A model generated the notes under the pieces. That model was not told where the DNA came from and did no database searches. It was given only the letters and a program-made list of their open reading frames with translations. Below, piece by piece: positions 48,434-64,000 of a stretch of 64,000 nt of DNA (its first letter is position 1; every line of letters starts with the position of its first letter). The stretch is from positions 124,001-188,000 of the forward strand of contig CALYQW010000001.1 in the NCBI GenBank assembly GCA_945290265.1, read 5' to 3'. The DNA comes from an uncultured Erwinia sp. (GTDB lineage Bacteria; Pseudomonadota; Gammaproteobacteria; Enterobacterales; Enterobacteriaceae). The position numbers were made by a program, and so were the translations under genes.

Positions 48434-50119
48434 ATGACCTTAACCTTAGGGCTTGATTTTGGCAGTGATTCAGTACGTGCGCTGGTGGTGGACTGCCAGA
48501 ACGGCAAAGAGCTGGCCTCCGGTGTTGCGGAATACCCGCGCTGGAAAAGCGGCCTGTTCTGTCAGGCAACGGTTCATCAGTTCCGTCATCATCCGCAGGA
48601 TTATATTGATGCGATGGAAATGGCGGTCAGACAGGCCACGGCACAGCTCAGTGCCAGCCAGCGTCAGGACATCGTGGCGATTGGCGTGGACAGTACCGGC
48701 TCGACGCCAGCACCGGTGGATGCCAGCGGCCAGGTACTGGCACTGCGCCCGGAATTTGCCGACAACCCCAATGCCATGTTTATTCTGTGGAAAGATCATA
48801 CCGCGGTCGCAGAAGCCGAACAGATCACCCGCCTGTGCCATAGCGCCGGGAAAACCGACTATTCACGCTATATTGGCGGCGTTTACTCCAGCGAATGGTT
48901 CTGGGCAAAAATTCTGCATATTACCCGCCAGGATGCGCAGGTAGCCGCCGCTGCGACCTCCTGGGTTGAACTCTGTGACTGGGTGCCCGCCCTGCTGAGC
49001 GGCACCACCCAACCACAACAGCTGCGGCGCGGGCGCTGCAGTGCCGGCCATAAAACGCTGTGGCATCCCTCCTGGGGTGGCCTGCCGCCCGCCCGCTTTT
49101 TTGATGAGCTGGATCCGCTGATTAACCAGTCGCTGTCGTACCCGCTGTTCACTGAAACCTGGACGGCGGATATTCCGGTTGGCACGCTGACGGCGGACTG
49201 GGCGGATCGGTTCGGGCTGTCTGCACAGGTGGTGATTGCCGGCGGGGCATTTGACTGCCATATGGGTGCCGTGGGTACCGGAGCCCGTCCTCATACCCTG
49301 GTGAAAGTGATTGGTACCTCCACCTGCGATATTTTAACTGCCGATTATCACACCACCGGTGACCGCACCATCAACGGTATCTGCGGTCAGGTTGATGGCA
49401 GCGTGATGCCGGGTCTGATTGGGATGGAAGCCGGTCAGTCCGCCTTTGGCGATATCTATGCCTGGTTTGAACGCCTGCTGAGCTGGCCGCTGACCCGGCT
49501 GGCGGCACAGCAGCCGGAATGGCAGCCACAGCTGGATCACAGCCGCAAAACCCTGATTGCCTCACTGACTCAGGCCTGGGCGGATCGCCCCGATCTGGAA
49601 CATCTGCCGCTGGCGCTGGACTGGTTTAATGGCCGCCGCACCCCGTATGCCAATCAACGTTTAACCGGGGTGTTGGGCAATCTCAATCTGGCCACCGATG
49701 CTCCCGCCCTGTTTGGTGGTCTGATCGCCGCCACCGCCTTTGGTGCCCGCAGCATTATGGAATGCTTTACCCAACAGGGGATTGCCGTAGAGCAGGTCAC
49801 CGCGCTGGGCGGCATTGCCCGTAAAAATCCGGTGATTATGCAGGTGTGCTGTGACGTGCTGAACCGGCCGCTGGATATTGTCGCCTCCGATCAGTGCTGT
49901 GCGCTGGGTGCCGCGATTTTTGCCGCCGTGGCTGCCGGGATCTGGCCGGATATCCCACGCGCTCAGCGCGCCATGTCCAGCCCGGTGGAACATACCCTGC
50001 AACCGCACCCGCAGCAGGCCGCCCGCTATAACCAGCTTTATCAGCGCTATCTCAACTGGGCACAACAGGCAGAAAAACTGTGTGATGCCGCCGTCACCGA
50101 CGATCAACTGACCTTCTGA
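48434..50119 (+). CDS. araB: Ribulokinase
   Basis: A 561-aa FGGY-family kinase that phosphorylates L-ribulose to L-ribulose 5-phosphate. The ATP-site start [20 protein letters not shown] and the substrate block [14 protein letters not shown] are araB-specific. Size is close to E. coli AraB (566 aa). araA begins 7 bp after it. Confidence 0.97.
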
Positions 50120-50126
50120 GGATCTT

Positions 50127-51632
50127 ATGAAAACGATTTTCGATAATTATGATATCTGGCTGGTGATTGGCAGCCAGCATCTGTATGGCGCAGAAACCTT
50201 ACGTCAGGTGAACCTGCAGGCGCAGGAGGTGGCTGCCGCGCTGAATGGCGGACAGCGCCTGCCCTGCAATCTGATCCTGAAATCGCTGGCCACCACGCCG
50301 GATGAGATCACTGCGCTGTGTCAGCAGGCAAATTATGATGCGCGCTGCGCCGGCATTGTGGTCTGGCTGCACACCTTCTCGCCCGCCAAAATGTGGATCA
50401 ACGGCTTAACCCGCCTGCATAAACCGCTGCTGCAGCTGCACACTCAGTTTAATGCCACCCTGCCGTGGGACAGCATCGATATGGACTTTATGAACCTGAA
50501 CCAGACCGCCCACGGCGGACGAGAATTCGGCTTTATTGGTGCGCGCATGCGCCAGCATCACAGCGTGATCGCCGGTCACTGCCAGGATGCCACCACCCAA
50601 CAGCGGCTGGCGGGCTGGATCCGTCAGGCTGTCTCGGAGCAGGATACCCGCCAGCTGAAAGTGGCGCGCTTTGGCGACAATATGCGCGAGGTGGCGGTTA
50701 CCGAAGGGGATAAAGTGGCTGCCCAGATGCGCTTTGGTTATGCGGTCAATACCTGGCCGGTAGGCGACCTGGTGCAGGTAGTAAACGCGGTCAGCAGCGG
50801 CGAGATTAACGCGCTGCTGGATGAATATGAGTCCAGCTATCGGCTGACGCCCGCGGTACAGGTGAACGGGGCGAAACGTCAGAACCTGCTGGATGCTGCT
50901 CGCATCGAGCTGGGGATCAAAACCTTTCTGCAACAGGGCGGTTTTCACGCCTTTACTACCACCTTTGAAGATTTACATGGCCTGGCACAGTTACCGGGAC
51001 TGGCGGTTCAGCGCCTGATGCACCAGGGCTACGGCTTTGCCGGTGAGGGTGACTGGAAGACCGCCGCGCTGCTGCGCATGATGAAGGTACTGAGCTTTGG
51101 CCTGCCGGGCGGCACGTCATTTATGGAGGATTACACCTACCACTTTGAGCCGGGTAATGACCTGGTGCTTGGCTCGCATATGCTGGAAGTCTGCCCGACG
51201 ATTGCCACTGACGACAAGCCGATCCTCGACGTTCAGCCGCTGGGCATTGGCGGCAAAGCCGATCCGGCGCGGCTGATCTTCGCAACCCGCCGTGGCCCGG
51301 CGATTAACGCAAGCCTGATCGGTCTGGGCGATCGCTTCCGGCTGCTGGTGAGCTGCGTCAATACCGTCGATGCACCGCAGCCACTGCCGAATCTGCCGGT
51401 CGCCAGCGCCCTGTGGCAGGCCGAGCCGGATCTGCCCACCGCTGCCGAGGCCTGGATCCTGGCCGGAGGCGCGCACCATACCGTCTTCAGCCACGCGCTG
51501 ACGCTGGAAGATATGTTTGCCTTCAGCGAACGCTATGACATTGAGATCGCGGTGATCGATCGGCATACCCGCCTGCCCGCCTTTAAGAATGCACTGCGCT
51601 GGAACGAACTGTATTACGGGATGAAACGCTGA
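50127..51632 (+). CDS. araA: L-arabinose isomerase
   Basis: A 501-aa Mn2+-dependent enzyme (E. coli 500 aa) that converts L-arabinose to L-ribulose. It begins [20 protein letters not shown]. The metal/catalytic region includes [25 protein letters not shown] and GGAHHTVFS. It is second in araBAD. Confidence 0.98.
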
Positions 51633-51666
51633 GAGCGCGGAGCCGCCGGATCCGCAGGAGAAGACG

Positions 51667-52368
51667 ATGCTTGAACAACTGAAACAGCAGGTTTGCGCCG
51701 CTAATCTGGCTCTCCCGCAGCATAGCCTGGTGACGCTGACCTGGGGGAATGTCAGCGCCATTGACCGCCAGCGCGGTCTGCTGGTGATCAAACCCTCCGG
51801 GGTAGAATACAGTGCGATGACGCCCGACGATATGGTGGTGGTCAGCCTGGAAAGCGGTGACGTGGAGGAAGGTGCGGCAAAACCCTCGTCCGATACGCCG
51901 ACCCATCGCTACCTGTACCAGCACTTTCCTGATATCGGCGGCATTGTGCATACCCATTCGCGTTACGCCACCATTTGGGCGCAGGCCGCACGTCCGATCG
52001 CGGCTTTGGGCACCACCCATGCTGACTATTTTTACGGTGCGGTGCCCTGCACGCGCGCACTGACCGCCGGGGAGATCGAACAGGCTTACGAGCGGGAAAC
52101 CGGTAAAGTGATTGTCGACACCTTCCGCCAGTTGGATCTCGATCCGGCCGCCATCCCCGGCGTGCTGGTACATTCTCACGGCCCTTTTACCTGGGGCCGC
52201 GATGCGGCAGATGCCGTGCGCAATGCCATTGTGCTGGAGGAAGTCGCCTGCATGGCAATTTACAGTCATCAGCTCAGAGCATTACTGCCGTCAATCCCGC
52301 AGAGCTTACTCGACAAACATTATTTACGGAAACACGGTGCCAGTGCCTATTACGGCCAGGGTAAATAA
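51667..52368 (+). CDS. araD: L-ribulose-5-phosphate 4-epimerase
   Basis: A 233-aa class II aldolase-fold zinc enzyme producing D-xylulose 5-phosphate for the pentose phosphate pathway. Zinc histidines are in [14 protein letters not shown] and [19 protein letters not shown] near residue 28 binds phosphate. An AGGAG lies just before the ATG. Last gene of araBAD. Confidence 0.97.
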
Positions 52369-52579: not shown

Positions 52580-53143
52580 ATGAGTTTTAGTTTACCGGGA
52601 ACACGCCTCTATTATCTGTTACACGATAATCTGGAACCTGAACGTTACGAATCAATTGTTGGCCCGGCCGAGGCCTGGCGATATATCACTGATCACTTAG
52701 AGTTCGATGATTTATACCGCGGTTACTATCATATTGATGGCGTGCGCCACCGTCCTTCAAAGAATAATCCTCACCAGCGGGCTGCTTACAGAACTAAAGC
52801 GGAACGTCATCTGCGCAATCTGGTTTATCGCGGTGAAGTGGTATTACTGGGCGATCATACCACTCAGGGAAAATTATTTTATATCAACCGTCATGGCGAA
52901 CTGGTGTGTCATCTGTCGCGCATGTTTGAATTCAGCGGTGAAGAACATATTATCCGTGAGTATCAGCGTTCGGTCCGTCGTCGTAAAGGTCAGAATACCG
53001 ATCCTTTAGCCGTCGAAGTCACGCCTGCCGACAGAGGACGCCCTGCGTTTTCTCCGGTACTGACGGCCAGCAGCCAGGCAACCTCACGCGATCCCTATAC
53101 GGCCCCGGTTAACACCATGAAAACTGGTTATACCAAAAGGTAA
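52580..53143 (+). CDS. Hypothetical protein, 187 aa
   Basis: I do not recognise this family. The product is soluble and basic. It has a Tyr-rich N-terminal half (LYYLLHDNLEPERYES, then YRGYYHIDGVRHRP). Next comes a segment with a likely RNA- or DNA-binding Arg cluster (SVRRRKGQN), and then a Pro/Ser/Thr-rich tail. The start at 52580 has AGGA upstream; an in-frame ATG-less extension to 52535 is rejected. It lies alone between araD and a HAD hydrolase. Confidence 0.55.
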   Translation: MSFSLPGTRLYYLLHDNLEPERYESIVGPAEAWRYITDHLEFDDLYRGYYHIDGVRHRPSKNNPHQRAAYRTKAERHLRNLVYRGEVVLLGDHTTQGKLFYINRHGELVCHLSRMFEFSGEEHIIREYQRSVRRRKGQNTDPLAVEVTPADRGRPAFSPVLTASSQATSRDPYTAPVNTMKTGYTKR

Positions 53144-53255
53144 AATCGCGCTCTGACCAGGCGCTGACACTCACCGTGCCTGTGATATCGTCCTCAGTGC
53201 AGATTTGATATTATCTACACATCAGAAAACTGCTAATGACAGAGTGACGCAAAAA

Positions 53256-53939
53256 ATGAGCATGGATTTACAGATGCATAGCGACAGTAAGGTGCTGTCG
53301 GTATTCGATTTTGATGGCACCCTGACGTTCCACGACAGCTTTATCCCTTTTCTGCGCTTCGCGTTTGGCCGGCGTTTCTTTGCCCGACGCTTGGTGAGAA
53401 TGGCGTTCCCCACCCTGCGCTGTATGCGTAAAAAACTGACCCGTGATGAGTTAAAAGAGGTGCTGATTAAAACCTTTTTAACCGGCGTGGAAGAGAAATG
53501 GCTGCACGCACAGGCACAGGCATTTTGTGACGCCAACTGGACGCGCCTGATGCGCCCTGCCGGACTGCTGGCGGTTGCCGCAGAAGTTAACACCGGTGCC
53601 GAAGTAACCATCTGTTCGGCCTCACCGGCAATAGTACTGGAACCGTTTGCCCAGCGCCTGGGAATTAAGTTGATCGGGACTCAGCTGGAGGTTGCCGACG
53701 GTATGCTTACCGGTCGCATCACCGGACATAACTGCCGCTGCGGACAGAAGGTCGCACGCCTGAAAGCGATTTATGGCCCACTGACGCATTATCACCTCAG
53801 GGCCTGGGGCGATACGCGCGGTGACTATGAGCTGCTGGCTGCGGCACAAACGCCACACTGGCGACACTTCCATTCGGGGTGGTCTAAAAAGCGCCGCTCC
53901 CCGCTGGAAAAGTTACAGCTGTCATCACCAGGACGCTGA
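53256..53939 (+). CDS. HAD-IB family phosphatase
   Basis: A 228-aa hydrolase of the phosphoserine-phosphatase-like HAD-IB group. The catalytic DFDGTLT is at Asp18-Asp20, TICSASP is motif II, and WGDTRGDYELL is motif IV. A basic helix (RRFFARRLVRMAF) follows motif I, as in PGP-phosphatase-like members. The start at 53256 (MSMDLQMHS) is by position; 53205 is an alternative. The substrate is unknown. It is convergent with the TerD-like gene. Confidence 0.7.
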   Translation: MSMDLQMHSDSKVLSVFDFDGTLTFHDSFIPFLRFAFGRRFFARRLVRMAFPTLRCMRKKLTRDELKEVLIKTFLTGVEEKWLHAQAQAFCDANWTRLMRPAGLLAVAAEVNTGAEVTICSASPAIVLEPFAQRLGIKLIGTQLEVADGMLTGRITGHNCRCGQKVARLKAIYGPLTHYHLRAWGDTRGDYELLAAAQTPHWRHFHSGWSKKRRSPLEKLQLSSPGR

Positions 53940-53944
53940 CGGCA

Positions 53945-53966
53945 GGCAGCGGCACTCTCCGCTGCC
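53945..53966. terminator. Hairpin between the HAD gene and the TerD-like gene
   Basis: GGCAGCGG and CCGCTGCC with loop CACTCT (53945-53966). No T tract. Confidence 0.4.
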
Positions 53967-53990
53967 ATCGAGGTCAGGTACATATCCAGG

Positions 53991-54446
53991 TTAACCTAAA
54001 GCAAATAATTTCCAGCCATCATCCTCACGACAGATATCAATTATCATCATGGCCTTATCTTCAGGGCTCTTTACCAGCGGGGCCCAGGAAGCGATGCCAT
54101 CCACGATCACTTTCAGACGGCTTAACTGACTGAGGGTATTACCATGGTCACCACTGATCGCCAGACTGAAAGCTATTTTGTGCACATCGGCGGGGATTTT
54201 ATCCAGCGCCAGCTTAACCATACTGCCCTGGCCGAGCGGTTTTAACAGCACGTTACGACTGGGGGTCGCGGGGCAATGGTTTGAAATATAGTCACTGTTG
54301 CGGCTGATACTCCCCCCGGCATTGATCAAACAAATATTGACCTTGACCTCATCCATAAACGTGGGGGGGAAATTGTGATGGATACCAAGCGTCACTCTGG
54401 TGGTTTTTAATAACAGACTCTCACCGGGTTGCAGTTTCAAACGCAT
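53991..54446 (-). CDS. Degenerate TerD-like protein
   Basis: A 151-aa protein resembling the TerD fold in its second half (VKLALDKIPADVHKIAFSLA, then MMIIDICREDDGWKLFALG). It lacks the acidic [13 protein letters not shown] loop that binds calcium in TerD, TerE and TerZ; the equivalent stretch reads NHCPATPSRN. A strong GGAGG precedes the start. A terminator separates it from terE, so it may be transcribed on its own. TerF is not found here. Whether it is functional is unclear. Confidence 0.6.
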   Translation of the reverse strand: MRLKLQPGESLLLKTTRVTLGIHHNFPPTFMDEVKVNICLINAGGSISRNSDYISNHCPATPSRNVLLKPLGQGSMVKLALDKIPADVHKIAFSLAISGDHGNTLSQLSRLKVIVDGIASWAPLVKSPEDKAMMIIDICREDDGWKLFALG

Positions 54447-54569
54447 AACCTCCTGTTAAACACGCTAATTCACTGAAAATAAATGCTGAATACGGTTAGT
54501 TTATTGACTGCCCGCCCCCACTGCAATCCCAAATACTGCTGCCTTGAGCTGGCCTTTAAAAAAAACACC

Positions 54570-54594
54570 AAAAAAACCCCCGGCTATGCCGGGG
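54570..54594 (-). terminator. Rho-independent terminator of terE
   Basis: On the minus strand CCCCGGC (54594-54588) pairs with GCCGGGG (54584-54578), loop ATA, then a run of T residues at 54576-54571 and a second T run. Confidence 0.9.
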
Positions 54595-54618
54595 TCCACT
54601 CACGCGCAAGCGTTACAA

Positions 54619-55194
54619 TCAAACATTCACACCATGCTGCGCTGCCAGCGCCGCCAGACCACCGGCAAAACCCTGACCTACTGCTTTAAACTTCCAGTCA
54701 CCGTTATGGCGATACAACTCACCAAAAATCATCGCAGTTTCAGCAGACGCATCTTCCGACAGGTCAAAACGGGCAATCTCATTGCCATTGTCGTTATTAA
54801 AAATGCGCATATAACTGTTACTGACCATACCAAAGTTCTGCTTACGCTCTTCGGCATCATAAATCGTCACTGCAAATACCAGCTTGCTGACCGCAGCCGG
54901 CACCGCCGCCAGGGTGATTTTAACCTGCTCATCATCACCATCGCCTTCACCGGTGCGGTTGTCACCCTGATGCTGCACAGAACCACAACCGCTTTCTTTG
55001 TTGTTGAAGAAGATAAAGCTGGTGTCATTCAGCACTTTGCCATCTTCGCCGACCATAAACACCGAGGCGTCGAGGTCAAAGTCCTGACCGTCAGTAACGC
55101 GTGCATCCCAACCCAGGCCGACCATCGCCACGCTCATGGTGGGTGCTTCTTTGGTCAGTGATACGTTACCGCCTTTTACCAGAGAAACTGCCAT
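54619..55194 (-). CDS. terE: Tellurite resistance/stress protein TerE
   Basis: A 191-aa calcium-binding TerD-family protein. It starts [19 protein letters not shown] and carries [19 protein letters not shown] and the acidic loop [14 protein letters not shown]. Close to E. coli TerE along its length. It is the last gene of terZABCDE before a strong terminator. Confidence 0.95.
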
Positions 55195-55299
55195 TGACTG
55201 ACTCCTGATTATTCTTTGTCAGCGCGCAGAGGATGGCCTGCTGCGCGCGATAATGATTGGCTTCCGGCGCTGGCCGGAATGGATTGCAGCCTGAAAGGA

Positions 55300-55878
55300 T
55301 CAGGACGCGTTAATACCATACTGCGCACAAACAGACGCCAGACCACCGGCATAGCCCTGACCCACCGCACGGAATTTCCACTCACCCGCGTTGCGGTACA
55401 GTTCACCGAACAGCATCGCGGTTTCGGTAGACGCATCTTCAGTCAGATCGTAACGGGCCACTTCAGACTGGTTATCATCGTTGACCAGCCGGATAAAGGC
55501 ACCGGATACCTGACCAAAGCTCTGACGGCGCGCCTGCGCATCATGGATAGTGACCACAAAGACGATTTTGTCGACATCGGCCGGAATGGTATCCAGTTTG
55601 ATTTTCAGTGATTCATCATCACCGTCGCCTTCACCGGTACGGTTATCACCCGTATGGGTTACCGAACCGTCCGCAGAGCGTAGGTTGTTATAGAAGATAA
55701 AGTCAGAATCGCTGCGCACTTTACCGCTGGCGGCCAGCAGAAACGCCGAAGCATCGAGGTCAAAATCCTGACCGTCAGTGGAACGCGCATCCCAGCCAAG
55801 GCCAACAAGGACGTTCTTCATGGTGGGGGCCGCTTTGCTCAGCGAAACGTTACCGCCTTTAGAAAGAGAAACGCTCAT
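55300..55878 (-). CDS. terD: Tellurite resistance/stress protein TerD
   Basis: A 192-aa paralogue of TerE with the same calcium-binding blocks ([12 protein letters not shown] and [14 protein letters not shown]). It is preceded by a strong GGAGG site. The terD-terE gap of 105 bp has an inverted repeat (GCGCGCAG and CTGCGCGC) that may control relative expression. Confidence 0.95.
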
Positions 55879-55949
55879 TGTATTACCTCCTGATTGTAGT
55901 TTTTCCGGTTCATTATTGCTGCCTGCCGGTACAGGCAGGCAGTCGCAGA

Positions 55950-56987
55950 TTAATGTTCAGCTTTTTCTTCGTTCTTGCCAGGGAAAATCACACTCACGAT
56001 AATCCCCACCGCCAGCACGCCCAGTACCACAAACAGGCTGGTCGTAGCGGAAATATTGTAACCATGATGCCAGATATGGTCGGTGGCATTCAGGCCGAGT
56101 TTGGCGGCAATAAAGAACAGCAGCACGATCACCGCCTTCTCCAGATGCACCAGGTACTGTTTTAACGCTTCCAGCACAAAGTAGAGCGTGCGCAGACCGA
56201 GGATGGCGAACATCATGGCACTGTATACAATCAGCGGCTCGCGGCTGACGGCGATAATCGCCGGCACCGAGTCAAAGGCAAACATCACGTCCGACAGCTC
56301 GACCACCGCCACACACAGCAGCAGCGGGGTAGCATAGCGCATCGCTTTCGCCCCACGGCCAACGGTAACGTCTTTGTTTTCCGGTTTTTTCAGCTCTTCA
56401 TCCACTTCCGACTGACTGAGGAAGAAGGCGTTGCCGCGCAGTTTTGGCCAGATGGGGAACAGGCGTTTCACCATCCGGTAAGCCAGATGCTGCGAGTAGT
56501 CTTCAATCTCATCGCTGTCATCACCGCTTTTCAGCATCATCACCGCCGTCCAGGCGACAATCAGGGCAAAGACAATCTCTACATACGGCCCCAGGCTGAG
56601 CAGTCCGGTACCAATCGCCACGAAAATTCCGCGGAAGACAATGGCACCAATAATCCCCCAGTAAAGTACCCGGTGGCGATAGCGATCGGGCACCGCAAAC
56701 CAGGAGAAAATCGCCATCATGACAAACAGGTTGTCCACTGACAGCACTTTCTCCAGCGCGTAACCGGTGACAAACAGGCTGGCCACTTCAGCGCCGTGGT
56801 GAATATACAGGAAGCCGGCAAAGCCCATCGCCACCAGCACCCAAAACACTGACCAGAGTGCGGCGCTTTTCAGCGTCACCGGCTTGTCGCCACGGTGCAT
56901 AAACAGGTCAATAACGATCGCACCAATCGACAGCACGATAAAGACGATAACGGTTTCCGTGGGAAAGCCGATATGTGTAGAGTTCAT
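55950..56987 (-). CDS. terC: Tellurite resistance membrane protein TerC
   Basis: A 345-aa integral inner-membrane protein with about nine TM segments. The conserved acidic membrane residues lie in [13 protein letters not shown] and [13 protein letters not shown], features of the TerC/Alx family linked to metal-ion transport. In Ter systems it is thought to anchor the TerB-TerD proteins at the membrane. Confidence 0.95.
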
Positions 56988-57011
56988 AGTTAACCCTTAG
57001 CAATAACGCTA

Positions 57012-57467
57012 TTAAAGACCGAATTCGGCCGGTTCAAGGCCAAGTGCAACCGCGATTTCCCGTACCGCTTTCTGTTCGTCCTGATCGAAATTGCCATCAC
57101 TTTTACCCACTGCAATACCCACGCGGATCGCCAACTGCGCGGCTTCCGGCTGATCTTTCAGCGCCAGGATATATTTCATAGTTTCACCCTTCCCGATTTC
57201 CATATCGAAATCGAAGCCGGTGACCAGCTTGTTGAAGAATTCAATGATTTCGGTGGTATCAAACCCCTTCAGCTCTTCGGAAGAACGCAGAAAGCCGATC
57301 ATTTTCTGCTTTTCTTCCGCGCTGACGCCATCACTGGCCATGGCGATACGTGCGCATACCGCTACCGTGCCCTGCATAAACTTCTTATTTTTAAAACGCC
57401 CAACCTGGCGGGTTAGCTCTTCCCGGCTGGTGTTGAATGCCCCTTTGACCTTATCGAAAAAACTCAT
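57012..57467 (-). CDS. terB: Tellurite resistance protein TerB
   Basis: A 151-aa helical protein with acidic clusters that bind metal. It begins MSFFDKVKGAFNTSREELTR and contains ASDGVSAEEKQKMIGFLRSS and KSDGNFDQDEQKAVREIAVA, the paired EF-hand-like helices of the family. It sits between terA and terC. Confidence 0.94.
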   Translation of the reverse strand: MSFFDKVKGAFNTSREELTRQVGRFKNKKFMQGTVAVCARIAMASDGVSAEEKQKMIGFLRSSEELKGFDTTEIIEFFNKLVTGFDFDMEIGKGETMKYILALKDQPEAAQLAIRVGIAVGKSDGNFDQDEQKAVREIAVALGLEPAEFGL

Positions 57468-57487
57468 TCTTCTTCCTCTTTTCGTGA

Positions 57488-58627
57488 TTATTTGGAACCT
57501 GATTTCCAGCGAAACCCCCAGCCAAATGCCTGATCCATATCGGCATGGCCCTTAAAAAATTGGTTGATACGTTCAACCCTGATACTGCCATCATTGTTCA
57601 CCAGTCGGGCGATGGCGCACATATTGCGCCGGTTTTGCCCTGCGGTCAGACGGGTTTCAATCGGTGGCTGATCCGGCATATGAATAATAACCACGCCATC
57701 AGTTTTATCCCAGCTGGCCACGCCGTCATAAATAAAGGCAAAAATCATCACTTCGCGGATTTTGTTCCAGCGCTGACCGTTGATATGCAACCACTCACCG
57801 TTACTAATATCTCCGGTACGGTCATCGCCCTGCAGCTGTACATAAGGCTGGTCGTACATTGAACCAAAGCTGTTACCCAGCGCCTGAATCACCAATTTGT
57901 GGCCATCGGCCAACTCGACAAAGGCTCCCAGATCGAGGTCAACACCCTTGTTGCCGCCAAAAATCGCGCGCAATCCGCCAGCCCCCGCCGTGGCACGGTG
58001 CCAGTTAAGGTTAATGCGAATTTCACCAAAGCTGTCACGTTTGGTCAGGCTGATGGCGGGTTTCTCTTTGGTCAGCGAGACTTTGCTTAAACTGACTTTC
58101 GCCGCCGGGACGGGTGCCGGAGCAGGAGCATCAGCCGCAATATCAACGCCAAAATGCTCCGCCAGCGGCTGCAGACCGCCGTTAAATCCCTGAGCAATAA
58201 AGCGGAACTTCCACTGGTCATTGCGCCGGTACAGCTCACCCAGGATCAGCGCCGCTTCCTGACGTCCGGCCAGTTCAACCGGACCTTTAAGCAGCACTTC
58301 ACCGTTCTGTTCCAGCTGAATCACCAGATGCTGCAGCCCGGCGACGGTTTTCCCGCCATCACAGGTTACGGTAAACGCCACTTTTTGCACGCCAGCCGCC
58401 AGCCGGGCAAGTTCAACCTGAAACAGGATGTTATTCCCTTCGTTTTTCAGGCTGATGGTGCGATCGTCATTTTCCGGCTGACCATAAAACACCATATCGG
58501 CATCGCCGTTCACTTTACCGCTGGCATACAGGCGAAACGCCGAGGCATCGGCCGCCGCACCGGACAGTACACGCAGGGTTAACTGCCCTGCAGGCACTGC
58601 GGCATTACTTCCGGGAGTCATTATCAT
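57488..58627 (-). CDS. terA: Tellurite resistance protein TerA
   Basis: A 379-aa protein with two TerD-like beta-sandwich domains joined by an Ala/Pro-rich linker near residue 170 (APAPVPAAK). Its start ATGA overlaps the terZ stop, implying translational coupling. The second domain carries KGVDLDLGAFVELADGHKL and GDDRTGDISNGE. Confidence 0.93.
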   Translation of the reverse strand: MIMTPGSNAAVPAGQLTLRVLSGAAADASAFRLYASGKVNGDADMVFYGQPENDDRTISLKNEGNNILFQVELARLAAGVQKVAFTVTCDGGKTVAGLQHLVIQLEQNGEVLLKGPVELAGRQEAALILGELYRRNDQWKFRFIAQGFNGGLQPLAEHFGVDIAADAPAPAPVPAAKVSLSKVSLTKEKPAISLTKRDSFGEIRINLNWHRATAGAGGLRAIFGGNKGVDLDLGAFVELADGHKLVIQALGNSFGSMYDQPYVQLQGDDRTGDISNGEWLHINGQRWNKIREVMIFAFIYDGVASWDKTDGVVIIHMPDQPPIETRLTAGQNRRNMCAIARLVNNDGSIRVERINQFFKGHADMDQAFGWGFRWKSGSK

Positions 58628-59208
58628 CGCTGCACCACTATACGCACAATATCGTCAAACATGGCATCAATGGTCTTGCCTTCGCAGGCAGAGCCATGCG
58701 CGGTAAAGTCCCACTGACCGCCGTTGCGTCGCAGCGAGGCAATCACCACCCCGGTATGGCGCCCCTGCTCGTTCAGCTGATAGCGGGCCAGTTCTTTGCC
58801 GTTTTGATCCACCACGCGGCAGAAGGCATTCTCAACATCATGGAAGGTCTGTCCGCGGAAACTGTTCACGGTAAACGCCAGATATTCAACATCGTTACGC
58901 AGCTTTGTCAGATCAACGTTGATCACCTCATCATCACCCTCGCCTTCACCGGTCAGGTTATCACCGCTGTGAATGACCGCTTTACAGCGTGAATGCAGCG
59001 CGCGGAACCAGACGGTATCCAGACGCTCTCCCGCACTGTTGAGCAAAATACAGCTGGCATCCAGGTCAATGGATTCCTCAGCGCCAAAAAGTTTCGCCAT
59101 AAACCCCTTCTTTTTAATCGGGTCCCAGCCTAAACCGAAATGCAGTTTATTAAGCGCTGTAGATTGTTTACTGAGTGATACCGTCTGATTTTTGCTTAAT
59201 GAAACCAT
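58624..59208 (-). CDS. terZ: Tellurite resistance protein TerZ
   Basis: A 194-aa TerD-family protein, the first gene of the terZABCDE operon. SIDLDASCILLN and the acidic loop GDNLTGEGEGDDEV mark it. GAGGG precedes the ATG. Its promoter must lie in the divergent region to the right. Confidence 0.94.
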   Translation of the reverse strand: MVSLSKNQTVSLSKQSTALNKLHFGLGWDPIKKKGFMAKLFGAEESIDLDASCILLNSAGERLDTVWFRALHSRCKAVIHSGDNLTGEGEGDDEVINVDLTKLRNDVEYLAFTVNSFRGQTFHDVENAFCRVVDQNGKELARYQLNEQGRHTGVVIASLRRNGGQWDFTAHGSACEGKTIDAMFDDIVRIVVQR

Positions 59209-59528
59209 GTCTTAATTCCCTCAAACAGACATTAAAAAGGCGCTAATTTTTTAGGGTATATCGAATAGTGAAAAATCATATCATGATGCTACTTGTGAAC
59301 AAGCACAAATTTAAATCAAATTACGAAAAATAAATTAACCACTTGAATAACAAAGAATACAAATAGAATCTCTTTTGAAAAATTCACCGCTCAATGACAA
59401 TTCCTTACATTATAATTCATAAACTTACCTTAAATAGTCAATCATATTATGATTTTCATCATTGGTATAAAAAATACTCACTCCATACATAGTAAGCTGA
59501 TGAAAACCTGGCAGGTAAATAATAAAAA
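59209..59528. promoter_or_regulatory. Divergent promoter region of ter operon and PRTase operon
   Basis: 320 AT-rich bp with no gene. Two related 15-bp palindromic sites, AATCATATCATGATG (59274-59288) and AATCATATTATGATT (59440-59454), flank it. A candidate terZ promoter on the minus strand has TTGTTC (59302-59297) and TATGAT (59280-59275) spaced by 16 bp, overlapping the first site. For the right-hand operon a TATAAA near 59466 is possible but weak. Confidence 0.6.
59275..59302 (-). promoter_or_regulatory. Candidate terZ promoter
   Basis: TTGTTC and TATGAT spaced by 16 bp, reading toward terZ. The -10 overlaps the palindrome at 59274-59288, so a regulator bound there would block it (inference). 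Confidence 0.4.
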
Positions 59529-59756
59529 ATGAACCTTAAATTGTGGATTATGGAAGGCAAACCGCGCCAGAGAAATATTATCAGGCGCACTCGTTCTGCT
59601 GTTGATGATTATCCACAACAGTTGCAGGTTTATGCCTCTCACCGTGATGAGCGTATGAAATACTTTCTCGCATTAACTGAGCCAGCATATAAATCACAGC
59701 GCTACGTATTTATTCCGCGCCCCTGGTTCACTGAACCAACTAACCGCATTGCATAA
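59529..59756 (+). CDS. Small protein (75 aa) leading the Ter-linked operon
   Basis: I do not recognise a family. It reads MNLKLWIMEGKPRQRNIIRR and then VYASHRDERMKYFLALTEPA, soluble and basic, with an aromatic end (YVFIPRPWFTEP). The stop is 7 bp before the ATG of the PRTase gene, fitting an operon leader gene. The ribosome site is weak (AGG 14 nt upstream), so expression is uncertain. It could be a true small protein or a leader frame. Confidence 0.5.
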   Translation: MNLKLWIMEGKPRQRNIIRRTRSAVDDYPQQLQVYASHRDERMKYFLALTEPAYKSQRYVFIPRPWFTEPTNRIA

Positions 59757-59763
59757 GGCTGAA

Positions 59764-60894
59764 ATGATGAACACCACCTGGAGCAGAACGCTTTCCTGTG
59801 GCACGCTAAGCATTACCCCACACAGCGAGCGCTACCCCCTGAGCGATTTGTTTGAAATCGCCGAACGCCGCAATCCCAAACGCGCCTTTTTGTTTGTCAG
59901 CAAAGTACTGGGACGGCATATTCCGGTCGAACCGGCCGTTATGCGTGCAACCTACCGCCAGCTGGCCAGTCAGTTCCCGCCGCTGCCTGACGGCCCGGTG
60001 CTGTTTATCGGCATGGCGGAAACCGCCGTCGGCCTCGGAGCCGGGGTATTTGATGAGCTGCGCCAGCGCACGGATAACGCGCTGTACCTGACCTCAACCC
60101 GCCATCCGCAACCGGCTGAACTACTGTGTGAATTTAAGGAAAACCACAGCCATGCTACCGACCATCTGATCTACTTACCGGACGATGCGGCGCTGCGCCA
60201 GCGGGTGCGGGCGGCGCGTACCCTGGTGCTGATCGACGATGAAGCCACCACCGGCAATACCTTTATCAATCTGCTGGAGGCGCTGCGTCACGACGGTGGC
60301 CTGAGCGAGCTGACCCGGGTGATCGCCGTGACCCTGACCGACTGGAGTGGTAATGCGCTGCACCAGCGCTGCCCACTACCGGTGAGCACGGTTGCGCTGG
60401 TTACCGGCCGCTGGCAGTGGCAACCGCGCCCGGATGCCGCGCTGCCGGCAATGCCGGAGGTGAACGTCAGCAGCAGCGGCAGTGTGGCCATCACCGGCAA
60501 ACAGAGCTGGGGTCGGCTGGGGATGACGGTGCCGGCAGCCGATCTCGGCACGGATATCAGCAGCCGGCCGGGGGAGAAGATTCTGGTTCTCGGCAGCGGT
60601 GAGTTTGTCTGGGAACCCTTCATGCTGGCGGAACGGCTGGCCGCTCAGGGGGCTGAAGTGAAATACAGCGCGACCACCCGGTCACCGATTGCCTGCGGTT
60701 TTGCTGTCGAATCCGCTCTGACCTTCAGCGATAACTACGGGCTGGGCATCGCCAACTTTATTTACAACGTGGTGCACCAGCAGTTTGACCGCATTCTGCT
60801 GTGCTGTGAAACCCCCGCCGCCAGTATTGATCCGCAGCTGATCGCCGCGCTGGATGGGGTGGCACCGCGCGTAGAGGTCATCTGCTATGAATAA
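59764..60894 (+). CDS. Phosphoribosyltransferase-TRSP domain protein
   Basis: A 376-aa protein. The PRPP-binding loop is LVLIDDEATTGNT at residues 154-166, in an N-terminal type I PRTase domain. A C-terminal TRSP domain follows, with its namesake motif in YSATTRSPIACG and CCETPAASIDPQ. The ATG at 59764 has AAGG 5 nt upstream; a TTG at 59749 is rejected. Ter-linked biosynthetic operons are predicted to use this enzyme to attach a base-like group to ribose. It overlaps the next gene by 8 nt (ATGAATAA). Confidence 0.8.
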   Translation: MMNTTWSRTLSCGTLSITPHSERYPLSDLFEIAERRNPKRAFLFVSKVLGRHIPVEPAVMRATYRQLASQFPPLPDGPVLFIGMAETAVGLGAGVFDELRQRTDNALYLTSTRHPQPAELLCEFKENHSHATDHLIYLPDDAALRQRVRAARTLVLIDDEATTGNTFINLLEALRHDGGLSELTRVIAVTLTDWSGNALHQRCPLPVSTVALVTGRWQWQPRPDAALPAMPEVNVSSSGSVAITGKQSWGRLGMTVPAADLGTDISSRPGEKILVLGSGEFVWEPFMLAERLAAQGAEVKYSATTRSPIACGFAVESALTFSDNYGLGIANFIYNVVHQQFDRILLCCETPAASIDPQLIAALDGVAPRVEVICYE

Positions 60895-61669
60895 ACCGGT
60901 GATCTTCTCCGATCTTGACGACACCCTGTTCCAGACCCGGCGCAAAATGGTCGATGAGCTGGATCAGACCCCCTTCCGCTGTGGCGCACTCGATCGCAGT
61001 CATGAGCCGCGCAGCTTTATGACCGAAGAGCAGGCGATGCTGGTTGACTGGATGCTGGCCAGTGCCGAACTGATCCCGGTCACGGCGCGTGGCAGTGAAG
61101 AGCTTAGCCGGGTACAGATCCCGTTTACCTCCTGGGCAATCGCCACCCACGGCGCGGTGATCCTTAACCCGCAGGGGGAAGCCGATGCGCAGTGGCGCGG
61201 CCTGATGCTGGATCGGCTGCAGCCTTACCGCGCACAGCTGCTGGATATGCAGGCAGCCATCAGCGCCCTGATGGCCGAACGCGGCGTTAACGGCTGGGCG
61301 CGTATTAATTACGAATATAACCAGACCCCGGTGTATCTGGTGATGAAACACCGCGACAGCACCCGGCTGGACGAACTGTACGCTATTGCCGATGACGTTG
61401 CCCGGCGTTTTCCGCTCAGCGGCTATTACCAGCATCGCAACAGCAATAACGTGGCCTGGCTTCCGCAGGTGGTGGAAAAAGGGCTGGCGGTCAGCTGGCT
61501 GCTGGACAAACTGCGGGCAGAACGCGGCACCTTCCCGGTGATTGGCCTCGGAGACAGCCTGAGCGACCACCTCTTTATGAAACTGTGCAGCTGGTACGGC
61601 CTGCCGCGCCAGTGTCAGTTTGCCACCGCGATTAACCAGACCCTTTTTGGAGACGCGCACGATGCCTGA
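60887..61669 (+). CDS. HAD family phosphatase of the Ter-linked operon
   Basis: A 260-aa hydrolase. It starts with the nucleophile motif SDLDDTLF (residues 8-15); PVTARGSEELSRV carries motif II, and IGLGDSLSDHLFMK the metal motif. A cap domain lies between. The start overlaps the PRTase stop and its own end overlaps stiP by 8 nt, so all three are translationally coupled. It probably dephosphorylates an intermediate of the predicted pathway; the substrate is unknown. Confidence 0.8.
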   Translation: MNKPVIFSDLDDTLFQTRRKMVDELDQTPFRCGALDRSHEPRSFMTEEQAMLVDWMLASAELIPVTARGSEELSRVQIPFTSWAIATHGAVILNPQGEADAQWRGLMLDRLQPYRAQLLDMQAAISALMAERGVNGWARINYEYNQTPVYLVMKHRDSTRLDELYAIADDVARRFPLSGYYQHRNSNNVAWLPQVVEKGLAVSWLLDKLRAERGTFPVIGLGDSLSDHLFMKLCSWYGLPRQCQFATAINQTLFGDAHDA

Positions 61670-62741
61670 TATCAAGAGTTTTTCCGGCAGCTATCGCCCG
61701 GAAGATGTGCAGTTTTTACTGCAACCGGTTGAGATTGATATGACCCCGGTGGAGCAGAAAGAGCAGCTGATCCAGTCCGGGCAGCGTCACTATTCCGAGA
61801 TGCTGAGCCAGGAGCCGGTGCCGGGCCACTGGCATCTGGATCTGTTTTCCCGCGCGCTGGAACAGGGCAAAGAACGGCTGGCGCGCGAAGTCACCATGCT
61901 GGCGCGTGCGCTGGCCAGCCGCTTTGCCGGTCAGCCGGTGATCCTGGCAAGCCTGGTCCGTGCCGGGGTGCCGTTAGGGGTAATGCTGCAACAGGCGCTG
62001 AGCGCCATGGGGCATACGTCAACCCATTACGGCATCAGTATTATCCGCGATCGTGGTATCGACAGCTGCGCACTGGACTGGATCGAAGCCCGCCATGGCA
62101 GCGAAAATCTGGTTTTTGTTGATGGCTGGACCGGTAAAGGCGCTATTACCGCAGAACTGACCCGCACCCTGCAACAGCGCCCCGGCTATCCGGCGCAGCC
62201 GCGTCTGGTGGTGCTGGCCGATCCCTGTGGTCGTGCCTGGCTTGCAGCCAGCCATGAAGACTGGCTGATCCCGTTTGGCATTATGGGCGCACCGGTTTCC
62301 GGCCTGGTGTCACGTTCGCTGTGGCGCGCAGACGGACTGCATGGCTGCCTTCAGTGCGATCATCTGGCGCGTTTCGACTGCAGTCAGTCACTGGCAGACA
62401 GCGTAACCGCCTGCGCGGCTGGCCTGGATTTACGCGATCTGCCCCCCAGCCCACAGGACACAGTGCGCCAGCGGCAGTTGAGCCAGCAGAGTGAGCAGAC
62501 CATTGCCACCCTGACACAGCGTTATCAGATCGACAGTATTAACCGCATTAAGCCGGGGATTGCCGAAGCCACCCGCGCGGTGCTGCGCCGGGTGCCGGAT
62601 CATGTACTGGTCAGATCGGTGGACGATCCTGACGTTGCGCTGCTGGTGTATCTGGCACGCCAGAAAGCGCTGACCATTACTGAAGCCGGCAACGATCTGG
62701 GTCAGTATCGTGCCGTCACTATTATCAAAAAGGTGCTGTAA
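61662..62741 (+). CDS. StiP-type protein (PRTase-like and PELOTA domains)
   Basis: A 359-aa protein usually annotated as cysteine protease StiP. The N-terminal two-thirds resemble a PRTase fold (VILASLVRAGVPLGVMLQQA and VFVDGWTGKGAITAEL). The C-terminal 70 or so residues form a PELOTA RNA-binding domain (VPDHVLVRSVDDPDVALLVY). The start is 61662, inside the end of the HAD gene; 61620 is rejected. The protease label is doubtful from this sequence; a nucleotide or RNA-linked role fits the neighbours better (inference). Confidence 0.75.
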   Translation: MPDIKSFSGSYRPEDVQFLLQPVEIDMTPVEQKEQLIQSGQRHYSEMLSQEPVPGHWHLDLFSRALEQGKERLAREVTMLARALASRFAGQPVILASLVRAGVPLGVMLQQALSAMGHTSTHYGISIIRDRGIDSCALDWIEARHGSENLVFVDGWTGKGAITAELTRTLQQRPGYPAQPRLVVLADPCGRAWLAASHEDWLIPFGIMGAPVSGLVSRSLWRADGLHGCLQCDHLARFDCSQSLADSVTACAAGLDLRDLPPSPQDTVRQRQLSQQSEQTIATLTQRYQIDSINRIKPGIAEATRAVLRRVPDHVLVRSVDDPDVALLVYLARQKALTITEAGNDLGQYRAVTIIKKVL

Positions 62742-63703
62742 TGAACGCTCGTCTTTCTCCCTGGCGACTGGGGGCCACCCTGTATATGCCCGCCCTGCGC
62801 TGCGATATCGCGGATGCCATTTTGCATAATAAGGTCCCCGGGCTGCGCTCACTGGTGATCTGCCTGGAGGATGCGGTCGCGGAAGCCGATTTGCCGCAGG
62901 CGTTGGCGAATCTGCAACAGTTGCTGCAGACGCTGAATGCGGCACGCACTGCCGGTGGGCATCAGCACTGGCCACTGGTGTTTATTCGTCCCCGCCACTG
63001 TGTCATGGGCCGCGAACTGATCGCCGGTTTCGATCTGAGTGCCGTTGACGGTCTGGTGCTGCCTAAATTTACCCGCGCCTCGCTGCCAGACTGGTGGCAG
63101 ATGATGGAACCCACCCACCTTGCCATGATGCCCACTCTGGAAACCGAAGAGGTGTTTGACGTGCAGCAGATGCGTGAACTGGCGCTGACTGTGCAGCAAC
63201 ATCCCTGCCGCCGGCGTATTATTGCGTTGCGTATCGGTGGCAACGATCTGATGAATGTCATTGCACTGCGACGCCCGCGCCATTGCACGCTGTATGACAG
63301 CCCAATGGGCTACACCATCAAAATGCTGGTTGCGGTGTTTGCTGCACGTGATTTCGCCCTGACCGCACCGGTGTGTGAGCATATTGATGACCAGCACATC
63401 ATGGAGCAGGAACTGGCGCTGGATATTGCCCATGGACTGGTGGGAAAAACCGCCATTCATCCCTGCCAGATTGGGTTAATCCATCAGAAAATGATGGTTT
63501 CGTCCGGCGATCACGCCGATGCGCTACGTATTCTGAATTCAGCCCAGGCGGTATTTAAATCCCAGGGGGCGATGTGCGAACCGGCAACGCACCGCCGCTG
63601 GGCGGCGGCCATCCTTGCCAGAGCGCAGGTTTACGGTATTGCTCAGGATAAAGTCTCACTCTCAAGGCGTTTTTCTGCTGATATCTGGCACAGTAACTTC
63701 TAG
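62741..63703 (+). CDS. CitE-like HpcH/HpaI aldolase/citrate lyase family protein
   Basis: A 320-aa TIM-barrel protein. ICLEDAVAEADLPQAL and RIGGNDLMNVIALRR carry acidic metal and CoA-type substrate residues. KTAIHPCQIGLIHQ is the conserved end block of the family. Its ATG overlaps the stiP stop as TAATG. Ter-linked operons often end with such a lyase, predicted to add an acyl-type carbon unit to the metabolite. Confidence 0.82.
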   Translation: MNARLSPWRLGATLYMPALRCDIADAILHNKVPGLRSLVICLEDAVAEADLPQALANLQQLLQTLNAARTAGGHQHWPLVFIRPRHCVMGRELIAGFDLSAVDGLVLPKFTRASLPDWWQMMEPTHLAMMPTLETEEVFDVQQMRELALTVQQHPCRRRIIALRIGGNDLMNVIALRRPRHCTLYDSPMGYTIKMLVAVFAARDFALTAPVCEHIDDQHIMEQELALDIAHGLVGKTAIHPCQIGLIHQKMMVSSGDHADALRILNSAQAVFKSQGAMCEPATHRRWAAAILARAQVYGIAQDKVSLSRRFSADIWHSNF

Positions 63704-63758
63704 AAATCAGCGGGATGAATTAGTATTTTAATCTCTTTTCATTGGATGCAGGCTGATT

Positions 63759-64000
63759 ATGCAACTCAGTAGCCGACAGACTCGTATATACCGACTGGCC
63801 ATCCTGCTTGGCAGCAGTAAACCGCTGCCGGCAGCCAGCCTGCTCGATCAGTTGCACTGCTCCCGGCCCACGCTGATGCGGGCATTAAAAGAGCTGCGTG
63901 AAGACTGGGATGCCGACATAAAATACCATCCGGCCTCCGCCAGCTATCAGATGGCCGCAGCCGGTAAGCTGGATAAAAAATGCCTGCGCCGCTTTAGCGA
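63759..64000 (+). CDS. terW: Ter system regulator TerW (partial, runs off the window)
   Basis: The first 80 codons are visible, starting MQLSSRQTRIYRLAILLGSS. A winged-HTH follows (LLDQLHCSRPTLMRALKELR), and the frame reaches the window end. E. coli-type TerW is about 155 aa, so about half is missing. It is believed to regulate the ter promoter, and the repeated palindromes at 59274 and 59440 are candidate binding sites (inference). Confidence 0.85.
   Translation, partial: MQLSSRQTRIYRLAILLGSSKPLPAASLLDQLHCSRPTLMRALKELREDWDADIKYHPASASYQMAAAGKLDKKCLRRFS

What the first reader, a model, noticed from the sequence alone, without database searches (positions are those of the whole stretch)
59529..63703. 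Ter-linked coupled operon for a predicted unknown metabolite
Four genes (PRTase-TRSP, HAD, StiP/PELOTA, CitE-like) overlap by 8, 8 and 1 nt, so they are made together, and terZABCDE faces away from a shared promoter region. Comparative genomics has predicted that this kind of set makes a nucleoside-like compound, but no product is known. The arrangement is seen directly; the pathway is prediction.
Basis: partly seen in the sequence, partly recalled or inferred. Interest (0 to 1): 0.7.

Follow-up and report, generated by a model that had tools for sequence, protein, structure and literature searches.

The report
Pared-down Ter-linked enzyme operon
This is a known but unsolved bacterial stress gene cluster that, in this genome, has lost one of its usual enzymes and part of its usual promoter; comparing relatives shows which of its enzymes form the core and which can be dropped.

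Summary
The four genes, the 8/8/1-nt overlaps and the divergent terZABCDE are real. They belong to a known, common module: 954 of 5426 complete E. coli genomes match it. The usual first gene, the Ter ATP-grasp, survives only as a 75-codon remnant (59529-59756). terF has lost its vWA half. The operon's -35 reads TTTTCA where 77 of 80 relatives have TTGAC[A/T] beside an operator. terW follows, and two TerW-type operators lie between the operons. On a tree of 79 relatives, an outgroup and the window, ATP-grasp was lost about 6 times (5 forced), while PRTase and StiP stayed under purifying selection in ATP-grasp-less Xenorhabdus. PRTase and StiP coincide in 10 of 10 genomes that hold an intact copy of either, among 299. 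The HAD is homologous to a Pseudomonas 'trehalose phosphatase' whose near-identical plasmid copy sits inside a ter module. The nucleoside-like product remains a published prediction; these data point to a PRTase-StiP(-HAD) core with ATP-grasp and CitE optional. Moderate interest.

The parts
59767..60894 (+). PRTase_2 domain with C-terminal TRSP domain; PRPP-loop-like motif DDEATTGNT intact
   Evidence: Pfam 1e-61 and 3e-22; motif residues invariant in 12 rows
60887..61669 (+). HAD phosphatase, relative of PDB 6cj0/6d3v 'trehalose phosphatase'
   Evidence: E 1e-44; D9, D11, T66, K198, D223, D227 invariant in 11 rows; naming these as the HAD motifs is recalled
61662..62741 (+). StiP domain plus PELOTA RNA-binding-type domain
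   Evidence: Pfam 5e-88 and 7e-27; the PELOTA part matches L7Ae/S12/eL8 ribosomal proteins only weakly, E 0.07-0.6
62741..63703 (+). C-C_Bond_Lyase, CitE/HpcH-type TIM barrel
   Evidence: Pfam 6e-107; profile to PDB 3qll E 8e-7
59529..59756 (+). N-terminal remnant (75 codons) of the Ter ATP-grasp gene
   Evidence: 39% over 66 residues to the Salmonella plasmid ATP-grasp, E 8e-11 in a 19-protein set; full-length profile E 2e-10, positions 1-85 with stops
63759..64000 (+). terW, regulator gene; full gene 63759-64238 runs off the window
   Evidence: 54% to plasmid TerW; full ORF in L006:4760-5239
59275..59287 (.). Operator-like palindrome ATCATATCATGAT, terZ side
59441..59453 (.). Operator-like palindrome ATCATATTATGAT, enzyme-operon side; the following -35 position reads TTTTCA instead of TTGACA
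58624..59208 (-). terZ
57488..58627 (-). terA
57012..57467 (-). terB
55950..56987 (-). terC
55300..55878 (-). terD
54619..55194 (-). terE
53991..54446 (-). Truncated terF: TerD-like N-terminal part only
   Evidence: 32% to residues 1-147 of a 413-aa TerF; no vWA-TerF domain in the genome
53205..53939 (+). Second, HAD-IB type phosphatase, a recurrent ter neighbour
   Evidence: TIGR01490 5e-32; 73% to a gene beside ter on a Klebsiella plasmid; found in 42 of 80 named loci

Best explanation
A reduced copy of the Ter-linked enzyme module. SHOWN from sequence: PRTase-TRSP, HAD, StiP-PELOTA and CitE-like genes are intact and overlap; the ATP-grasp is a remnant; terF is cut; terW follows; two matching palindromes lie between the divergent operons; the enzyme operon's -35 differs from that of most relatives. 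INFERRED: PRTase and StiP work as a unit that puts a phosphoribosyl group on an unknown acceptor, and HAD removes the phosphate. CitE adds or cleaves a small carbon unit and the ATP-grasp, where present, ligates a further group; these two are optional finishing steps. The product acts on the TerD/TerB/TerC membrane stress system, and TerW keeps both operons down until stress. This genome should then make at most the unligated product, perhaps at altered expression.
For: Active-site-type residues kept. Coupling conserved: 74 of 75 and 72 of 79 loci. ATP-grasp lost 6 times on the tree, at least 5 forced by starred branches, with no full copy in 23 of 23 such genomes searched whole and 3 of 3 controls positive. 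After loss in 15 Xenorhabdus loci median dN/dS is 0.090 PRTase, 0.066 StiP. HAD missing in 6 of 24 ATP-grasp-less rows, 0 of 57 others. PRTase and StiP coincide in 10 genomes of 299; the only extra PRTase hit is a fragment with stops. Five loci lack both ATP-grasp and CitE (L112-L116); phage ME3 keeps PRTase-HAD-StiP. Operators: 79 of 80 loci have at least one.
Against: No enzyme activity of PRTase, StiP or CitE is known to me. The altered -35 and cut terF may mean the operon is dying here. HAD in the window evolves 1.2-1.45 times faster than in sisters, and HAD and CitE look relaxed in Xenorhabdus. Unverified phage PBAB25 has a PRTase with no StiP found, and phage scaffold L147 has PRTase, StiP and CitE without a HAD found. 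The 80 named loci were picked by a PRTase query, so PRTase presence there is given. HMM and BLAST thresholds can miss divergent ATP-grasps.
Confidence: 0.5

Rival explanations
1. The enzyme operon is dying in this genome: loss of the ATP-grasp, the changed -35 and the cut terF are stages of decay, and the four open genes are merely not yet broken.
For: ATP-grasp remnant; -35 TTTTCA against TTGAC[A/T] in 77 of 80 loci; cut terF; genome of 3.44 Mb against 3.8-5.7 Mb in the 35 same-genus genomes listed; HAD somewhat faster.
Against: Four long frames are open and motif residues kept. PRTase and CitE evolve as in sisters that keep the ATP-grasp (ratios 0.99-1.15 and 0.87-1.08). Similar ATP-grasp-less sets persist in 18 Xenorhabdus-titled loci.
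Confidence: 0.3
2. The HAD is a true trehalose-6-phosphate phosphatase and the module makes a sugar-type stress protectant.
For: Its solved relatives are deposited as 'Trehalose phosphatase'; the P. aeruginosa extra-chromosomal enzyme is assayed among trehalose-6-phosphate phosphatases (PMC6838324, passages).
Against: No OtsB or trehalose-phosphatase family matched at E up to 0.1 in Pfam or 0.01 in NCBIfam. The gene sits between PRTase and StiP, not beside a trehalose-phosphate synthase. It is lost only in ATP-grasp-less loci of the 81-row set.
Confidence: 0.08
3. StiP is a cysteine protease, as its Pfam name says, and the module controls stress proteins by cleavage.
For: Pfam description of PF11202. 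In 30 Enterobacterales rows two cysteines (232, 240) are invariant.
Against: In the 11-row set with P. aeruginosa no cysteine is invariant; 232 and 240 are each kept in 10 of 11, 189 in 9. The invariant stretches are RDRGID and DGWTGKG, which look more like a nucleotide-binding loop (inference).
Confidence: 0.04

Closest known systems
Ter-linked enzyme module of IncHI2 plasmids: ATP-grasp, PRTase, HAD, StiP, CitE, DUF4236, TerW (NZ_CP041182, L009)
   Same: Four of five enzymes at 69-72% identity, same order, divergent ter genes, TerW, operators
   Different: ATP-grasp only a remnant, no DUF4236 gene at the locus, terF cut, no terY/terX genes detected beside it, -35 altered
Chromosomal ter loci of Pantoea and Winslowiella (L032-L035, L038, L046)
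   Same: Nearest relatives on the tree; same operon order
   Different: Its 5 closest sisters keep a full ATP-grasp
ATP-grasp-less loci of Xenorhabdus and Proteus mirabilis
   Same: PRTase, StiP and CitE without ATP-grasp, TerW kept
   Different: Separate losses on the tree; HAD gone or reduced to 32 codons in 4 of the 18 Xenorhabdus-titled loci
P. aeruginosa 'trehalose phosphatase', PDB 6cj0, 6d3v, 6d3w
   Same: Homologue of the module HAD with the motifs aligned
   Different: 39% identity between the window HAD and the P. aeruginosa plasmid HAD; substrate of the window enzyme untested

Membership tests
Ter-linked enzyme module | PRTase_2 with TRSP domain | tested here: met
Ter-linked enzyme module | StiP with PELOTA domain | tested here: met
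Ter-linked enzyme module | HAD and C-C bond lyase next to them | tested here: met
   overlaps
Ter-linked enzyme module | Ter ATP-grasp (PF15632 type). Common but not defining: beside the PRTase in only 12 of 24 PRTase-bearing genomes of an order-wide sample | tested here: not met
   remnant only; sample counts
Ter-linked enzyme module | Adjacent ter genes, TerW and operators | tested here: met
Ter-linked enzyme module | Makes a nucleoside-like product | not testable with these tools
   prediction in the literature only (passages)
OtsB-type trehalose-6-phosphate phosphatase (for the HAD) | Match to a trehalose-phosphatase family model | tested here: not met
   none in Pfam at E up to 0.1 or NCBIfam at E up to 0.01; weak HAD-IIB and mannosyl-3-phosphoglycerate phosphatase hits only
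Cysteine protease (for StiP) | A cysteine conserved across the family | tested here: not met
   no invariant Cys in 11 rows, though two are invariant in 30 Enterobacterales rows
Phosphoribosyltransferase fold (for StiP) | Significant profile or fold match | tested here: inconclusive
   profile comparison with PRTase_2: probability 0.1%, E 0.41; structure prediction unavailable

The most novel reading that the evidence does not exclude
The inseparable PRTase and StiP-PELOTA proteins form one enzyme that acts on RNA: PELOTA holds an RNA, and PRTase/StiP add or exchange a ribosyl-linked group on it under stress. ATP-grasp, HAD and CitE only decorate or recycle the group, which is why they are lost again and again while the pair is kept.
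Probability: 0.1. Interest if true: 0.85.

Novelty: new member of a known kind. Interest (0 to 1): 0.4.

Why it matters
The module is common in enteric bacteria and on plasmids, and I found no report of its product. Natural deletions show where to look first: PRTase plus StiP, then HAD, with ATP-grasp and CitE dispensable in many lineages. A solved, assayable relative of the HAD already exists under another name, so substrate tests could be made now.

Tried and rejected
1) ATP-grasp lost only where TerF is absent: 7 of the 23 ATP-grasp-less genomes searched carry a TerF-type vWA gene elsewhere. Dropped.

2) The 75-codon ORF as a conserved mini-protein, because Rouxiella (L074) and Rahnella bruchi (L082) also keep N-terminal stubs of 96 and 66 codons: the three differ in end point and have lost different conserved residues. 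Read as decay.

3) StiP as a distant PRTase: probability 0.1%, E 0.41. Not claimed.

4) ATP-grasp moved elsewhere in this genome: the PF15632 hits lie in a 1080-aa and a 417-aa frame on other contigs, which I read as ordinary ATP-grasp enzymes (not checked further); the full-length profile finds only the remnant.

5) Rfam families in 53000-64000: none at gathering score. PADLOC: one weak hit, PRTase_III-A to the PRTase at E 0.004. Consensus promoter scan: 4 found against 2.8 expected, none at the aligned promoter.

6) Structures by sequence: no usable match for PRTase or StiP.
Full report
WHAT IS THERE. Pfam: PRTase_2 (1e-61) with TRSP (3e-22); StiP (5e-88) with PELOTA_1 (7e-27); C-C_Bond_Lyase (6e-107). 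The HAD has no Pfam hit over cut-off but matches PDB 6d3v and 6cj0 at 1e-44. terZABCDE faces the other way.

On an IncHI2 plasmid the order is terF-Z (-) | ATP-grasp, PRTase, HAD, StiP, CitE, DUF4236, TerW (+). In the window the ATP-grasp place holds a 75-codon ORF, 59529-59756, aligned to residues 1-66 of that enzyme (39%, E 8e-11 in a 19-protein comparison) and found by the genome-wide profile at E 2e-10 with stops. The ATP-grasp domain proper is missing. No full copy is found elsewhere in the genome. No DUF4236 gene was detected at the locus. TerW (54%) follows CitE and runs off the window. terF is cut to its TerD-like part and no vWA-TerF domain is found in the genome. A second HAD (53205-53939) is a recurrent neighbour, 42 of 80 named loci.

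CONTROL REGION. An 11-locus alignment of the divergent region shows two palindromes whose cores are near-invariant. In the window they lie at 59275 and 59441 and are the only two exact copies of ATCATATYATGAT in the 3.44-Mb genome; ATCAT-N3-ATGAT occurs only there in the window, and 0 of 100 shuffles had two. Of 80 named loci, 46 have two such sites in this region, 33 have one, 1 has none; 2 loci carry a copy outside it. The second site runs into TTGAC[A/T] in 77 of 80 loci (exceptions L068, L087, L088), followed in several aligned loci by TACACT or TAGACT about 17 nt on (my reading). The window reads TTTTCA there. The palindrome is not a discovery: PMC7843439 (passages) describes a 25-bp palindrome, two copies between the divergent operons, at the region reported as protected by TerW, and PhoP repression of both operons. 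What is added is the breadth and the odd -35 here.

CONSERVATION OF COUPLING. PRTase/HAD overlaps by 8 nt in 74 of 75 loci, StiP/CitE by 1 nt in 72 of 79; HAD/StiP overlaps by 8 nt in 25 of 74 and is separated by 1-2 nt in 35 (one of the 74, L103, is a HAD stub). In L094, which has no HAD gene, PRTase and StiP overlap by 8 nt.

LOSSES. One search kept the best 80 of 364 relatives of the PRTase, so these are biased to near kin. A full ATP-grasp is present in 57 and missing or a stub in 23: P. mirabilis, Rouxiella aceris, Rahnella bruchi, P. myxofaciens, one Enterobacteriaceae MAG and 18 Xenorhabdus-titled loci. Of these, 22 genomes (L097 shares one with L096) and the window's were searched whole: 23 of 23 have no full copy, 3 of 3 controls do. 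In the nine same-genus loci a near full-length ATP-grasp match is present in 9 of 9, one with an internal stop. On a tree of joined PRTase, StiP and CitE (81 rows: 79 named loci, L092 dropped for a split StiP, plus the window and a P. aeruginosa plasmid as a long-branch outgroup; short search) the loss needs 6 changes, at least 5 forced by starred branches. The window's 5 closest sisters keep the gene. HAD is missing or a stub in 6 of 24 ATP-grasp-less rows and 0 of 57 others, 5 changes; ATP-grasp-less branches are 27% of tree length, so 5 of 5 there has probability about 0.0015 if losses fell by length (rough).

STILL USED WITHOUT ATP-GRASP. In 15 ATP-grasp-less Xenorhabdus loci (L095-L110 without L097) median dN/dS is 0.090 PRTase, 0.066 StiP, 0.138 HAD (13 sequences), 0.126 CitE. 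In 10 Proteus loci, 9 with ATP-grasp, it is 0.078, 0.053, 0.044, 0.031; in 8 Erwiniaceae-type loci with ATP-grasp 0.127, 0.109, 0.088, 0.124 (NG86, pairs with dS 0.05-1.5, dS often near 1). So HAD and CitE look relaxed against Proteus but CitE not against the Erwiniaceae set. For the window, distances to four outgroups relative to five sisters are 0.99-1.15 PRTase, 0.87-1.08 CitE, 1.10-1.24 StiP, 1.18-1.45 HAD; TerC (1.38-1.67) and TerE (1.30-1.84) are faster still.

WIDER SAMPLES. Order sample: 24 of 394 genomes hold the PRTase; an ATP-grasp lies beside it in 12 of 24, two of them distant matches. Loci from 13 of the 24: L112-L116 have PRTase, HAD, StiP and a distant second HAD, no ATP-grasp and no CitE found; L117-L120 have PRTase-HAD-StiP-CitE without ATP-grasp, as in the window; L121-L122 have all five in another order with a divergent HAD that one search had missed; L123-L124 have all five. 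Phylum sample, 299 genomes, three of the hits shared with the order sample: StiP in 10, PRTase in 11; 10 coincide and the eleventh PRTase hit is a fragment with stops. In the 7 new loci PRTase and StiP are in 7, HAD in 6, CitE in 3, ATP-grasp in 1; three of these stretches end close to the module (L139, L140, L141). Phage ME3 keeps PRTase-HAD-StiP in a row; its Ter genes were already noted in PMC7824862 (passages). One viral contig, L144, has all five plus the second HAD. Against the rule: unverified phage PBAB25 has a PRTase and no StiP found, and scaffold L147 has PRTase, StiP and CitE with no HAD found.

THE HAD. On a P. aeruginosa plasmid the HAD lies between PRTase and StiP in a ter locus (L012). 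It matches PDB 6d3v at E 5e-161 over 251 of 252 residues, and by my count on the printed alignment its cysteines fall at 85 and 231. PMC6838324 (passages) assayed an extra-chromosomal TPP of P. aeruginosa and names Cys85 and Cys231. I therefore think that enzyme is a ter-module HAD. That it hydrolyses trehalose-6-phosphate specifically, and which of two P. aeruginosa copies was crystallised, I only recall from Cross 2018, which I saw only as a reference entry. One search listed 15 of 250 papers, none with both subjects; that does not prove the link is unpublished.

MECHANISM. The best-explanation section separates what is shown from what is inferred. The key inference is that the constant pair PRTase-StiP makes the central bond, HAD removes a phosphate, and ATP-grasp and CitE are finishing steps. 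The StiP label 'cysteine protease' is weak: no cysteine is invariant in 11 rows, though two are invariant in 30 Enterobacterales rows.

KNOWN OR NEW. The module and the metabolite prediction are published (2012 paper recalled, not held; seen through PMC8115787 and PMC7824862, passages). The five genes match in 954 of 5426 complete E. coli genomes, 953 over at least 80%, and the PRTase in 2556 plasmid records. The window copy is a reduced member. Whether reduced forms were described in 2012 I could not check.

Noticed in passing
L074:9697-9987 and L082:9728-9928: Rouxiella aceris and Rahnella bruchi also keep only N-terminal stubs of the ATP-grasp gene, decayed in different ways from the window's.
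   Followed up: yes
L012:13097-13855: A P. aeruginosa plasmid ter-module HAD is near-identical to the solved 'trehalose phosphatase' 6d3v, which suggests that enzyme's natural context is a ter module.
   Followed up: partly
L112-L116: Compact ter loci with PRTase, HAD, StiP and a second HAD but no ATP-grasp or CitE found.
   Followed up: partly
window 53205-53939: HAD-IB phosphatase beside the cut terF; relatives lie beside or within ter operons elsewhere, including directly after CitE on a P. aeruginosa plasmid.
   Followed up: partly
window 48434-52368 and L006:6528-15310: The ter locus sits between arabinose-type genes and a run that I read as pmbA, yjgA, mpl, fbp and ppa; these names come from recognising the sequences, not from a search.
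   Followed up: no
L030:3677-4251: In one same-genus relative the terD match is in two pieces and the ATP-grasp translation has a stop; possibly sequencing error or decay.
   Followed up: no
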